DNA of 59,846 nt from a virus, in IMG/VR virus record IMGVR_UViG_3300029787_000011, positions 22,744 through 82,589 of that record. One strand, given 5' to 3'. Positions 22,933-28,500 of this stretch are shown one piece after another. Every line of letters starts with the position of its first letter. Positions within the stretch are counted from its first letter, which is position 1. Under the pieces are notes generated by a model, which worked only from the letters and a program-made list of their open reading frames with translations, had not been told where the DNA came from and did no database searches. Made by a program: the position numbers and the translations under genes.

Positions 22933-25900
22933 CTATTTGGATCGAACTATTGCAGAATATTCGATACTCTTAATTCTATAAGAAGCACCGCCATTTCCGT
23001 TAACTAATTCTCCCCCTAAAACTGCCTGTGCAGCAGCATTAGCACCAGTAGTATCACTGGCATTATTAGTAAATGTTATTGTAGGATGTAAGGCATATGT
23101 TCCATCCACAGTTTGTGGAATACCATATCCACCATTGTTTACAGTAATTGATGCAACTTGATCTCCTGCAGCTGTCATGACCACAGTACCAATTGCTTGT
23201 ATATCACCTGTATTTTCTATTGCTACAGTAGGAACTGCAGTATAGTTAGTGCCAGGATTTGTAATCACAAAGTCAGTAATAGTATTCTTTGATGAAAACT
23301 CATAAAGATAACCTGCAATACCAACATTTATATTATTAGTATTGAATGGTATAACATCCTTAACTGTTAATACACCTGTTGAAGGTATCCAAGAAACAAC
23401 AGTTGCTTGTACACCAGATACTCCACCACTAACTATTTCGTTAGTAGAGAAGTTCTGACCATTACCAGTTGCACTATCCAAATATAAATCTATAAGTGCA
23501 GTGTGTTCAACACCTTCTGATAATCCACCTGCAGTTGTAATTGTTGCATACTTAAATGGTACATCACCATCTTTAATATTATCACCAACTTGGAATAGAG
23601 TTGTGTTAGTACCACCCTGTGTTTCCTCGATACCATAAAGTGAATTGTAAATACCACCATCAAGTGCAATTTGATTTGCATATGTTGTATTAGTATTACT
23701 TAAATCAGCAATACCGTCACCTGCAACAGTTGGTAATATATCTTGGAAAGACCTATCTGCCAATACAGATAAAGGTTCAGTCAATAAATCTATAGAAGTA
23801 CCTGCAGTTGTAAGAATTACATGTGGTAATACTCCTGCAGCAGAACTATCTGCAACACCACCATCAAATTGTACGATAGCATCTTCAGTCGCTGCCCTAC
23901 CACCGTCAATAAATGCTAATTCATCAACCTCAAATGTGACTAATAATTCTCTTGTATTAGCATCCCAATCATATACCTTAGCAACTTTGTTATTAGCATT
24001 TTCAACTTTTCTAATAACTCTATCACCAACATTAAATTTATAGTTTGATGATCCATCAGGATTATTTTGATTTGGGTCTAATATAACTCTTTGGTCATAG
24101 TTAAAGTTTACACCACGAGTTAGACCAGTGAATTTACCTGCAGATTTAGAGGTATAACTTATTGTTTCTCTATTAAGAATAATAGATCCAGAACCAGGAT
24201 ACGCATCTGTAGAATCAACATATATGTTTGAATCATTAGCAGTGACACTCTTGATTAATCCAGTTAAGTAAATTGCAGAAGAGTTAAATGCTTGTCTTGA
24301 TCTTGCTTTACGTTTTAATTGTACTAATTTTGTAAATACAATATTAGGTACAGATGTATATCCTACACCTGGTTCAGTAACTGTAATACCTGTTATAGCA
24401 CCTTGGAATATAGTTGCTGTTGCCTTCGCACCAATACCTCCACCACCAGTGATGAGAATATAAGGAGGTTCTTGATAAAACTCACCTGGATTAACAATAG
24501 AAATACTATTTACTTTACCAAGTGTATCGATTTCAGCAGCACCAACTGCACCTTGTCCACCACCACCTTCAAATATAAGAGTTGGAGGAGTAGCATAATT
24601 TCTACCAGAATTTAATAAAGAAAGACCTGTGACTGTTTGTACAATAGGACTACCTGCAGCACCAGTTCCAGTACCACCTAAAACTCTTGCTTGTGCAGGA
24701 CCAAAGTAATTATCACCAAACTTAGTCATCCTAACATAGTCAAGTTGACCTGCATTAGTCGTGCTCAAAACAACTTCTGCCTCAGCACCTTCTGGGAAGT
24801 TAGTTGTTAGTGGAGGGACTGTACTACCTTCAAATAAAGGCACACCATAATATTTCGGACCTATAGCATAAGGATATGTTGGATTACCTGCAGCATCCTC
24901 AGTCATATAATATGCATAAGTTCCATTTGGATATTCTGGAGTCTGAGAGAATCTACCATTATAATAATCTAAAGTTCCTACGATTGCCAAATATTTCCAA
25001 TTGCTTGTAGTACCAGTTGTATGTGTAGGTGCACTACCACCTGCACTTATTGATGCAGTTGCTTCGTAAATATATCCTGCGTTTCTTACAGTATCATATT
25101 GAACATAACTTGCTGTACTTGACCATGCATCAGATTCATCAAAAATATAATCATCTACAAGATCTCCTAATTGATAACCTCTATTAACTAATCTTAATCC
25201 CATACCTGCAGTGATATAAGCAAAGACATATAGATTACCTGGTGCATCTACAGGAACTGTAAAACGCACTTCTCTCTGTGTACTAGCAGTATTAAATAAA
25301 CTTACCCAAGTTTGATATGGTCGTTGTGAACCATCAATCCAATACTCTACACCTTGACCTGTGTAAAGATATGCACTATCACCAACTAAACCTGCATGCC
25401 AACCATCACTTGTTGTTGATATGAATAAGTGTTGGGAAGGAGCATTAGAAGAATCTAATTGATTAAAGACATAAGTCTTTCCTCTATCCAAAGATAAGAA
25501 AGTAGGAGATGCTCCATCAAAAAGAAATTTATTATTAGATACAGTTACAGCATAAGTGACTGTACTAGCAGTAGTGACTATTGGTCTAGCACCTTGTAAT
25601 TCTGGAGTAGTTCTTAATCTATATCCTGATCTTTCTTTAGCATATGTATTACCTGTTCTTCCAAAAGGTCCGTAAATAGGATACCCATCAAATGACATAC
25701 CTATAATTCTAGAATGACCATTTGCATATCTTGAATAATCTAATGTGGCACCACTTCCATAGTATCCTTCAATATAATAAGTGTTGTTTACAACTCCTGC
25801 AGTACCTGTCTGTGTAGCACTATCAAGTTGCATATAACCTTCGTCACCTGTAAACCCAGACATATATCTGTGGAACTGACAATAATAGTAAATTCTATTA

Positions 25901-27270
25901 TTCTCATCTGGATTCATTATAAACCAAGGTTTAAATGCTTCCTCGTAATCTGCAACAACAGCACCTGATGAACCTGTACTATTATAATACAATGTGCCAC
26001 CATTTAATGTACCATCAGCAGTGGTACTGAATTGCATAGGATGACCTTGTGTATGTGTTGACGTTATTCCATTACTAGCATCTGCTTGATTCCAAATAAT
26101 TAAATTATTAGCATGTACTTTGATATCTTGTGGAGCAAAGTAATATTGACCTGCTACAAAAGGACCGAACTCACTTGCATGAGTACCAAAATCAATATAA
26201 AATATACCACTATTGAAAGTTCTTGGTGCACCGCTTACTTTAAATGAGAATCCATTAGATCCCAAACATAGATCATCTTGTGAGAAAGCATCTCCTGTAA
26301 GACTTCTAAGATATATTCTTGTTACAACATTCTGACTATCTTTAACTACTTTTGATATTATACCTCTACCTGTACCACTAACTTCATCTACAATTCTACC
26401 AACTTCTACTTGTCCTAAGGTCTCATCAACATTAATAACGTTGAGCATTATATTATCAAACTCTACTTTAATATTCCAAACAAATACTCTAAGTAAACCC
26501 CATTCAAATACACCTTTTGTTAATGCAAATTCATCTATAGTTTTACTTGTTTGATAATAATGTGTTTGATTATCAATAATCGTATCATATACACTTGTAT
26601 TTTTTACGTAGTCATACTTTACAGTATCAATAGCAAAGTTTGTAGGTGCTCCACCAACTGTACTACCCCATTCTGGAGTATGTAAAAGACCACCGTTTGC
26701 TAATATACCAAGTGATTTATTTCTTTGAAATTCTCTTGTACCTGGATTTGGAACATCCTTACCACCTCTATAAACAAATGTCTGATTAAAAGTTCTATCT
26801 AAAATTAAAGTTGATCCACCAGACTGTCTTTCTGTTGGATAAATTTGTGAAGGTTTCGGATGATTATCTGATAATATAGTTAATCTATCTGTTGATCTAA
26901 CAGGAGTACCTGTAGTACCAAATGTTGCAGTGGTAGTACTATTTGGGTGACGTTGAAATATTCTTGTAAAATCAAATGAATTTACAACATTAGGAGTTTC
27001 CTGTTCAGGAATAATTTGCACTCTTAATGGATCATAACCCAAACCTCTATCAAGAACACGAACGTGAACTATTTGTCCTGAGTCTTCATCTATAATTGGA
27101 TATAATATTGCATCTCTTGTTGGAGTTCCACAACCAGTCACAGTGAGTCTAGGTGGATCTGCCTGAGTATACCCAGACCCACCATTTACAACTCTTACAG
27201 CACGGACACCAAACGTTTCGTCAAAGATAGGTTCAATGTCGGCACCAGTACCTGGAACGGTTCTTGCCAT
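22933..27270 (-). CDS. Virion protein with cupredoxin-like and YHYH-like domains, 1445 aa
   Basis: The N-terminus has Gly/Tyr repeats ([16 protein letters not shown]). About residues 365-490 form a cupredoxin-like domain whose type-1 copper ligands can be placed: H410 (GHPMQF), C464, H467 and M470 ([10 protein letters not shown]). Then [20 protein letters not shown] opens a YHYH-type domain. It is interrupted at about 590-700 by a second, degenerate cupredoxin-like unit (QHLFIST ... [13 protein letters not shown]) lacking the Cys and second His. It resumes with [21 protein letters not shown] at about 765-810, where the YHYH tetrad has become YAYY. The C-terminal half is Gly-rich repeats. It lies one base after the 409-aa cupredoxin protein and before gp8. 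It is probably an exposed baseplate or fibre protein; real copper binding is inferred. Confidence 0.7.
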
Positions 27271-28500
27271 TTATGTTACAACGTTGATAGTTCCTTGCAT
27301 TGCAGCATGGAGAGTACACTGATAATACAGTGTTGCAGGAGCGTCAAAAGGAACAGTCCAGTATAATACAGTAGTTCCACTACCAGATTGACCAGTAGTA
27401 TAAGGAGTACCAGTTAAACCTTGAGAAGACTGTATCCTAAATGGATGTCCTCCACCTTCAACTGAATTATCAAATGCATAACTAAAACCTCTATGTACAT
27501 AAAGTGTAGGGTCTCGAACTGCACCAGTAAGTCCTGGTCCTGATATTAAGAAGTCATTACTTGCATCTTCTACAGGTGCACCTATTTCATACCAAGTCAA
27601 TGGACTTCTAGTGACTACCCATGAGGTTCCATTATAGAATAAATTATCACCCTGAGTAATACCTGCAGTGTTTGTATCTGTTAAGGCTGCTAATGTGGTA
27701 GTTAAAGTACCAGAGAAGTTAACTGTGAGTGTGTCTCCTGAAACCGCAGTGGTAATATTTGTTCCACCTGCTATCGTTAATGTATCAGTCTGACTGTTAG
27801 CAGTTGTAGATCCTGAATCACCTGCAACTGTAGCAAACAAGTTAACAGAACTAACACCTGCGTTATCATCAGCAGGAACCCAGTTAGTTCCATTCCATTT
27901 TAAAGTCTGGTTTAAGTTTGGAGCAGTTGTTGTGACATCAACGTTTGATAAGTCATCAATACCAGAATATTGTGTTAATAGTGCTGCTCTTGTATCTCCA
28001 ACACCACCTGCTGTTATATTAATGTTTACGTATGGTTTATCATCACCATCTACTGTGAAGAAATAACCAGTATATGTCGCAGCAGCAGGAGCTGCAGCAA
28101 GAGAAGTATATTCGTTTTTATATTTTACTGTCGTCGGTAAGTCGATAGATCCATCAGAGCCGCTGAAAGTGCTAGTAATGGAACCATGACCCACAGTAAA
28201 ATTACCAGTTCCGTTGGGAGCGATAGCAATGTTTCCATTACTTGACGATACGATAGAATTTCCATTTACATTAAGGGCAGCTGTAAGGTTAGAATAATCA
28301 GAGGGGATAAAAGATGAACCATCATAACGTAATACTTGTCCTGCAGCAGGGTTAGTAGTATTTACAGTTAATGTAGTACCATTACCTAACGCAGAATACA
28401 ATTCGTTAAAATTATCATTAATCTTGTCGCCACCAGCTCTCAGGGTATCACCTGTGTTATCATTTGCAGCAGTTCCTAGATCTAGTGCTTGTTTTGCCAT
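27271..28500 (-). CDS. Fibre-like protein with C-terminal cupredoxin-like domain, 409 aa
   Basis: The N-terminus (ALDLGTAANDNTGDTLRAGG, then DKINDNFNELYSALG) is a common phage fibre anchor motif. The middle is Thr/Asn/Gly-rich beta sequence. The last 100 residues form a cupredoxin-like domain: TLYVHRGFSYAFDNS, then GGHPFRIQ, VPFDAPATLYYQCTLHAAMQ and a final GTINVV strand. The four type-1 copper ligands are H352, C395, H398 and M401, with the C-x2-H-x2-M spacing of amicyanin and pseudoazurin. A late promoter precedes the gene, and the stop abuts the 1445-aa gene. The domain may bind copper or may serve only as a stable beta fold; sequence alone does not decide. Confidence 0.75.
   Translation of the reverse strand: MAKQALDLGTAANDNTGDTLRAGGDKINDNFNELYSALGNGTTLTVNTTNPAAGQVLRYDGSSFIPSDYSNLTAALNVNGNSIVSSSNGNIAIAPNGTGNFTVGHGSITSTFSGSDGSIDLPTTVKYKNEYTSLAAAPAAATYTGYFFTVDGDDKPYVNINITAGGVGDTRAALLTQYSGIDDLSNVDVTTTAPNLNQTLKWNGTNWVPADDNAGVSSVNLFATVAGDSGSTTANSQTDTLTIAGGTNITTAVSGDTLTVNFSGTLTTTLAALTDTNTAGITQGDNLFYNGTSWVVTRSPLTWYEIGAPVEDASNDFLISGPGLTGAVRDPTLYVHRGFSYAFDNSVEGGGHPFRIQSSQGLTGTPYTTGQSGSGTTVLYWTVPFDAPATLYYQCTLHAAMQGTINVVT

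What the first reader, a model, noticed from the sequence alone, without database searches (positions are those of the whole stretch)
27271..28500. Intact type-1 copper site in a phage fibre-like protein
The last 100 residues of the 409-aa protein show a cupredoxin-like fold with H352, C395, H398 and M401 in the C-x2-H-x2-M spacing of amicyanin and pseudoazurin. A blue-copper domain displayed on a virion would be unexpected. It could stabilise the fibre, sense redox state or bind copper at the host surface. Ligands are seen directly; copper binding is inference.
Basis: partly seen in the sequence, partly recalled or inferred. Interest (0 to 1): 0.75.

Follow-up and report, generated by a model that had tools for sequence, protein, structure and literature searches.

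The report
Blue-copper-like domain on cyanophage baseplate
A protein that joins the tail fibres to the baseplate of common ocean viruses of cyanobacteria ends in a domain that looks like a blue copper electron-carrier protein with all four copper-holding residues strictly conserved, which suggests, though does not yet prove, that these virus particles carry copper on their outside.

Summary
The ORF lies on the minus strand (27271-28500) and is gp9, the baseplate-wedge/long-tail-fibre connector, of a P-SSM4-like T4-type marine cyanophage. Residues 301-409 are predicted with high confidence (pLDDT 94) to form a beta-barrel. By profile and by fold, the best hits are all blue-copper proteins or proteins built from cupredoxin domains (amicyanin, rusticyanin, Cu nitrite reductase, laccase). 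H352, C395, H398 and M401 sit where type-1 copper ligands sit. In 64 of 64 gp9 proteins fetched by their N-terminal part alone, all four are unchanged, while codons drift synonymously.

Beyond the first report: the next gene (gp10-like, 22933-27270) has a second conserved His/Cys/His/Met set (H410, C464, H467, M470), its fold match unproven. A related copy further along that protein has lost the ligands and varies freely, a built-in control. The domain recurs in many marine phage fibre proteins and in bacterial secreted or lipoprotein-like proteins.

No description of cupredoxins in virions was found in the paper library. Copper binding and function are not shown. Best reading: a metal-holding cupredoxin platform, probably 18 per virion, at the tail-fibre joint.

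The parts
27271..28500 (-). gp9, baseplate wedge / long tail fibre connector, 409 aa
   Evidence: phrog_677 E 9.1e-195 over residues 1-408; 92% identical to P-SSM4 gp9
28318..28494 (-). N-terminal T4 gp9/gp10-type baseplate-docking domain, residues 3-61
   Evidence: PF07880 47.3 bits, cutoff 25; PDB T4 gp10 E 4.5e-7 and gp9 E 1.8e-5
27274..27600 (-). C-terminal cupredoxin domain, residues 301-409
   Evidence: AF2 pLDDT 94.4, nine strands; Foldseek PDB hits with E<=0.001 are all proteins with cupredoxin domains; profile hits amicyanin E 1.7e-6
27445..27447 (-). codon of H352, predicted N-terminal His ligand, in GHPF motif
   Evidence: 64/64 His, codons CAT 34 / CAC 30
27316..27318 (-). codon of C395, predicted Cys thiolate ligand at end of penultimate strand
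   Evidence: 64/64 Cys, TGT 51 / TGC 13
27307..27309 (-). codon of H398, predicted second His ligand
   Evidence: 64/64 His, CAT 45 / CAC 19
27298..27300 (-). codon of M401, predicted axial Met ligand
   Evidence: 64/64 Met
22933..27270 (-). gp10-like baseplate wedge subunit (phrog_708), 1445 aa, starts directly after gp9's stop codon; also carries a YHYH domain
25801..26238 (-). second candidate type-1 site, residues 345-490, with H410, C464, H467, M470
   Evidence: aligned rows (gaps aside): His 131/131, Cys 116/117, His 115/115, Met 115/115; AF2 pLDDT 93.1; Foldseek does not find cupredoxins; weak profile link to the gp9 domain
25156..25575 (-). third, ligand-less cupredoxin-related copy in the gp10-like protein, residues 566-705 (internal control)
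   Evidence: Cys position is A/S/G in 112 rows and Cys in only 4; the other positions vary freely

Best explanation
The last ~109 residues of cyanophage gp9 are a genuine cupredoxin domain with an intact type-1 copper site (His352, Cys395, His398, axial Met401; amicyanin-type short loop). It stands in the place of the C-terminal domain by which T4 gp9 holds the long tail fibre. By analogy with T4, gp9 docks on the baseplate by its N-terminus and carries the fibre on its C-terminal domain, so up to 18 such sites would ring the baseplate at the fibre joints, solvent-exposed. Most likely the site binds copper in seawater or on release from the cell. The bound metal then closes and stiffens the top of the barrel, so that the domain is a rugged, metal-locked socket for the fibre. 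Shown here: sequence, predicted fold, conservation, place in the genome. Inferred: trimer and copy number (from T4), copper identity, stabilising role.
For: Profile of 81 phage domains against all PDB sequences: the 48 hits with E<=0.1 are all copper proteins of the cupredoxin kind, best amicyanin 1.7e-6 (the same picture with 16 sequences). AF2 pLDDT 94.4, pTM 0.87; Foldseek PDB: all 25 hits with E<=0.001 are Cu nitrite reductase, rusticyanin, amicyanin, pseudoazurin, laccase or other multicopper oxidase. Topology fits: H352 (model residue 57) just before strand 59-62; C395 (100) ends strand 95-100; H398 and M401 lie in the loop before the last strand 107-113. Ligands 64/64 in gp9s fetched by the N-terminal part, with synonymous codon change; 222 of 242 unique domains HCHM, 12 HCHQ, most of the rest truncated matches. 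The diverged copy in the gp10-like protein that lost its Cys varies freely at all four positions. RN05-S lost His, Cys and His together. T4 gp9: N-terminal domain on gp7, fibre coaxial on the C-terminal domain, 18 copies (PMC3004832).
Against: No single domain reaches a Pfam or NCBIfam cut-off. Foldseek TM-scores are only about 0.4-0.56, so it is a divergent cupredoxin. In the amicyanin alignment the first His is two residues out of register. The unbiased conservation set spans only 68-100% identity. gp9 is assembled in the host cytoplasm, where copper is kept scarce (own knowledge), so loading in vivo is uncertain. The stabilising role rests on analogy only.
Confidence: 0.6

Rival explanations
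1. The copper site is redox-active and matters during infection: reduction or copper exchange at the photosynthetic host's surface alters the gp9-fibre or gp9-gp10 contact and helps trigger the baseplate switch.
For: A full type-1 ligand set, axial Met included, is what tunes an electron-transfer site. The neighbouring gp10-like protein has a second conserved set, and in T4 gp9 binds gp10's C-terminal domain at the switch (PMC3004832).
Against: No electron partner is known; no redox data; contacts between the two domains are not shown; the domain also occurs in proteins unlikely to be switches.
Confidence: 0.13
2. The domain is a host-binding or copper-scavenging module: the metal, or the domain as a mimic of a host copper protein, is recognised by a receptor or copper-uptake protein on the cell (like the iron Trojan Horse idea for tail fibres).
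For: Widespread in tail fibre and baseplate proteins of marine phages; bacteria carry secreted or lipoprotein-like versions; iron-binding fibre motifs have been proposed in a marine phage (PMC11705849).
Against: In T4 gp9 is a joint, not the receptor-binding tip; the gp9 domain is conserved across phages of many hosts, unlike receptor-binding tips.
Confidence: 0.1
3. The fold is a cupredoxin but the site holds another metal (Zn or Fe), or none in the virion; the residues are kept for folding.
For: Metal identity cannot be read from sequence; host cytoplasm is copper-poor (own knowledge); other phage fibres use Fe or Zn (own knowledge).
Against: Cys plus two His plus axial Met is the type-1 copper set, and where the set is not kept in a sister copy the domain still exists with free variation at those positions, so the residues are not needed for the fold.
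Confidence: 0.15
4. A generic Ig-like or beta-sandwich decoration domain; the His/Cys/His/Met pattern is coincidence.
For: Phage tails are full of such sandwiches; Pfam finds no family above threshold for this part.
Against: Sequence profile and fold searches both return only cupredoxin-type copper proteins at the top; motif expected 0.009 times and found twice; invariance.
Confidence: 0.02

Closest known systems
Amicyanin (type-1 blue copper protein of methylotrophs)
   Same: C-x2-H-x2-M ligand loop, cupredoxin fold; best PDB sequence hit (E 1.7e-6)
   Different: Free periplasmic electron carrier; the phage domain has His-Pro instead of His-Asn at the first ligand and is fused to a baseplate protein; NCBIfam amicyanin cut-off far from reached (18 of 110 bits)
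Rusticyanin
   Same: Best match among single-domain cupredoxins by Foldseek E-value (1gy1 7.8e-5; 1rcy 8.3e-5, TMq 0.56); similar G-H-x-F-x-[IV] first-ligand motif (rusticyanin L401 GHSFDV against GHPFRI)
   Different: Longer ligand loop; acid-stable high-potential electron carrier
Multicopper oxidase / Cu nitrite reductase cupredoxin domains
   Same: Foldseek hits 2dv6, 5anh; His-Pro after the first ligand as in the HPxHxH motif of multicopper oxidases (own knowledge)
   Different: No trinuclear or type-2 site ligands seen; single domain
T4 gp9
   Same: N-terminal baseplate domain (PF07880) and gene order in the baseplate cluster
   Different: The match to T4 gp9 ends near residue 61; no sequence match to T4 gp9's C-terminal domain; about 109 C-terminal residues are cupredoxin-like
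Plastocyanin PetE of cyanophages (auxiliary metabolic gene)
   Same: Copper protein family in the same phages (PMC3037559)
   Different: PetE is a separate gene acting in host photosynthesis; this is a domain of a structural protein
Pfam At5g54830-like domain (PF25489)
   Same: Sub-threshold match to 25 of 81 phage domains, best E 1.3e-4
   Different: Domain of plant DOMON-type proteins (own knowledge); no cut-off reached

Membership tests
Cupredoxin fold | Greek-key beta-barrel like solved cupredoxins | tested here: met
   AF2 pLDDT 94.4; all Foldseek hits with E<=0.001 are proteins with cupredoxin domains; TM only about 0.5, so divergent
Cupredoxin fold | Sequence homology to cupredoxins | tested here: met
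   Profile to PDB: only cupredoxin-type proteins among hits with E<=0.1, best 1.7e-6
Cupredoxin Pfam families (Copper-bind, Cupredoxin_1) | Gathering score | tested here: not met
   Window domain matches neither up to E 10; relatives sub-threshold, 20 of 81 hit Copper-bind at E<=0.01
Type-1 copper site | Two His, one Cys, axial Met, at the canonical places on the fold | tested here: met
   Position on strands and loops; conservation 64/64
Type-1 copper site | Ligand atoms within bonding distance of one point | not testable with these tools
   Model coordinates not given out
Type-1 copper site | Cu bound; absorption near 600 nm; small hyperfine coupling in EPR | not testable with these tools
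   Needs protein
Amicyanin (TIGR02657 equivalog) | Model cut-off 110 bits | tested here: not met
   18.2 bits: works like, but not a member
T4-type gp9 | gp9/gp10 N-terminal domain, baseplate gene cluster position | tested here: met
   PF07880, phrog_677, order gp6-gp7-gp9-gp10-like-gp8
T4-type gp9 | T4-type C-terminal domain | tested here: not met
   No T4 gp9 match beyond residue 61; C-terminus is cupredoxin-like
Cupredoxin fold, for the second site in the gp10-like protein | Fold like solved cupredoxins | tested here: inconclusive
   Ligands invariant and weak profile link to the gp9 domain (E 1.1e-5, prob 82), but Foldseek gives only weak Ig-like hits

The most novel reading that the evidence does not exclude
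Marine cyanomyovirus particles are copper proteins: each carries about 18-36 blue-copper sites on gp9 and the gp10-like subunit around the baseplate, redox-active, helping to trigger or gate tail-fibre and baseplate rearrangement at the surface of a photosynthetic host, and forming a particulate copper pool in the ocean.
Probability: 0.15. Interest if true: 0.9.

Novelty: new variant of a known kind. Interest (0 to 1): 0.68.

Why it matters
T4-like cyanophages are among the most abundant viruses in the sea. If their baseplates carry conserved blue-copper sites, virion chemistry includes a redox metal that seems not to have been looked for, with bearings on virus stability, on entry into copper-sensitive Prochlorococcus, and on where oceanic copper sits. 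The claim is testable at once on laboratory phages such as P-SSM4, Syn19 or S-SM1, whose gp9 carries the domain.

Tried and rejected
Plus-strand reading of the coordinates: stops throughout. Single-sequence Pfam and NCBIfam scans: only sub-threshold copper-protein hits, so a profile was used instead. H336 as a possible ligand: it varies H/M/Q/Y, so rejected. Motif-based scans of viral contigs would bias the conservation count because the search pattern contains the motif; hence the fetch by residues 1-300 used for the 64/64 figure. Expecting the gp10-like site to be an obvious cupredoxin: Foldseek did not agree and its profile finds nothing convincing in the PDB, so it is only a candidate. The first genome-contig scan with one phage sequence found no relative; the alignment A4 did. 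Literature searches for cupredoxin, plastocyanin-like or type-1 copper with phage, cyanophage, virion or tail fibre found nothing relevant; the library lacks most subscription papers. Virion mass-spectrometry tables that may name gp9 and its neighbour in S-SM1 are in supplements that could not be read.

Full report
WHAT IS THERE. The stated coordinates carry a 409-aa ORF on the minus strand. It is gp9, the baseplate wedge / long tail fibre connector, of a T4-like marine cyanophage: phrog_677 over its whole length and 92% identical to gp9 of Prochlorococcus phage P-SSM4. The window is part of a 92-kb virus record and shows the baseplate order gp6 - giant gp7 - gp9 - gp10-like - gp8. The first ~60 residues match T4 gp9 and gp10.

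IS IT MORE THAN CHANCE. C-x2-H-x2-M occurs twice in 17,222 residues of the main proteins of the window, with 0.009 expected from shuffles. One is in gp9; the other is in the very next gene.

FOLD. A profile of 16 diverse phage domains, and then one of 81, was run against all PDB sequences. All hits at E<=0.1 for the larger profile are cupredoxin-type proteins: amicyanin 1.7e-6, Cu nitrite reductase 3e-6, rusticyanin 2.4e-5, plastocyanin, pseudoazurin, azurin. AlphaFold2 with the 81-row alignment gave pLDDT 94.4 and pTM 0.87. Foldseek against the PDB gave 25 hits at E<=0.001, all nitrite reductase, rusticyanin, amicyanin, pseudoazurin, laccase or other multicopper oxidase. TM-scores near 0.5 say the domain is divergent. 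On the model, H352 lies just before one strand, C395 ends the penultimate strand, and H398 and M401 sit in the loop before the last strand: the type-1 arrangement. In the printed amicyanin alignment the C-terminal three ligands align exactly and the first His is two residues off. In a four-sequence alignment with a rusticyanin (L401, TIGR03095 above cut-off) the GHSF motif is likewise not aligned column for column with GHPF. So the register of the first His rests on motif likeness and model topology.

CONSERVATION, WITH CONTROLS. To avoid bias, gp9 homologues were fetched with residues 1-300 only. Of 67 unique proteins, 64 reach the C-terminus, at 68-100% identity to the window; all 64 have H352, C395, H398 and M401, while His and Cys codons drift synonymously (CAT/CAC, TGT/TGC) and H336 changes freely. 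Across 242 unique domains from all scans, 222 are HCHM and 12 HCHQ; most of the rest are truncated matches (these scans partly use the motif). Synechococcus phage RN05-S has lost His, Cys and His together. A further control lies in the neighbouring protein: residues 566-705 of the gp10-like product are a related copy whose Cys position is Ala, Ser or Gly in 112 rows and Cys in only 4, with the other ligand positions equally free. So the domain can live without the ligands, yet gp9 never loses them in the unbiased set.

A SECOND SITE. The gp10-like protein (phrog_708) has H410, C464, H467 and M470, invariant but for one Cys (gaps aside) in some 115-131 aligned rows. Its model is confident (pLDDT 93.1) but Foldseek does not return cupredoxins and its profile finds nothing convincing in the PDB. 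A profile-profile link to the gp9 domain is weak (E 1.1e-5, probability 82). Some alphaproteobacteria (PS1 / OCS116 clade) have both types in tandem in one protein. I call it a candidate second metal site.

SPREAD. The domain is found in 334 phage records, nearly all cyanophages, in several fibre or baseplate proteins, in a lake actinophage, and as nameless 'beta-sandwich' proteins of giant viruses by fold. Relatives occur in bacterial secreted or lipoprotein-like proteins. Enteric T4-like phages share only the first ~35 residues.

HOW IT PROBABLY WORKS. In T4, gp9 is a trimer, 18 copies per tail; [quoted passage not shown] at the switch gp9 meets gp10 (PMC3004832). If cyanophage gp9 is built alike, the cupredoxin domain is the socket of the fibre. 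I think it most likely that the site takes copper and the metal stiffens that socket (shown: sequence, predicted fold, conservation; inferred: copper, copy number, role). A redox or copper-exchange trigger is the more exciting rival and is not excluded. A receptor or Trojan-horse role, or another metal, are further rivals.

NOVELTY. Cupredoxins and gp9 are both known; their fusion as a conserved virion copper site was not described in any paper I could search, and databases call it only 'connector'. It is a divergent cupredoxin not captured by Pfam cut-offs. Hence: new variant of a known kind.

Noticed in passing
22933-27270 (-), residues 345-490: Second conserved His/Cys/His/Met set in the gp10-like protein; fold match to cupredoxins not established.
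   Followed up: partly
25156-25575 (-): Ligand-less cupredoxin-related copy in the same protein; some relatives (for example L055, L030) have HCHQ here, the Gln-for-Met swap known from stellacyanin-like sites (own knowledge).
   Followed up: partly
L371, L373, L375, L376, L378, L381, L382, L385: Alphaproteobacterial proteins of the PS1/OCS116 clade carry the gp10-type and gp9-type domains in tandem, in that order; possible cellular source or recipient of the phage domains.
   Followed up: partly
28531-50463 (-): Single ORF of 7310 aa in the gp7 position (annotated baseplate wedge initiator in P-SSM4), with many repeats; very large for a phage protein.
   Followed up: no
22933-27270 (-), around residues 748-793: YHYH domain (PF14240) in the gp10-like protein.
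   Followed up: no
L082 (Synechococcus phage RN05-S): Cupredoxin-related domain in a tail fibre protein with His, Cys and His all lost.
   Followed up: no
BFVD hits A0A481Z7Q7, A0A481YWX9 and similar: Giant-virus 'beta-sandwich' proteins (Pithovirus, Marseillevirus metagenome genomes) match the gp9 domain by fold; ligands not checked.
   Followed up: no
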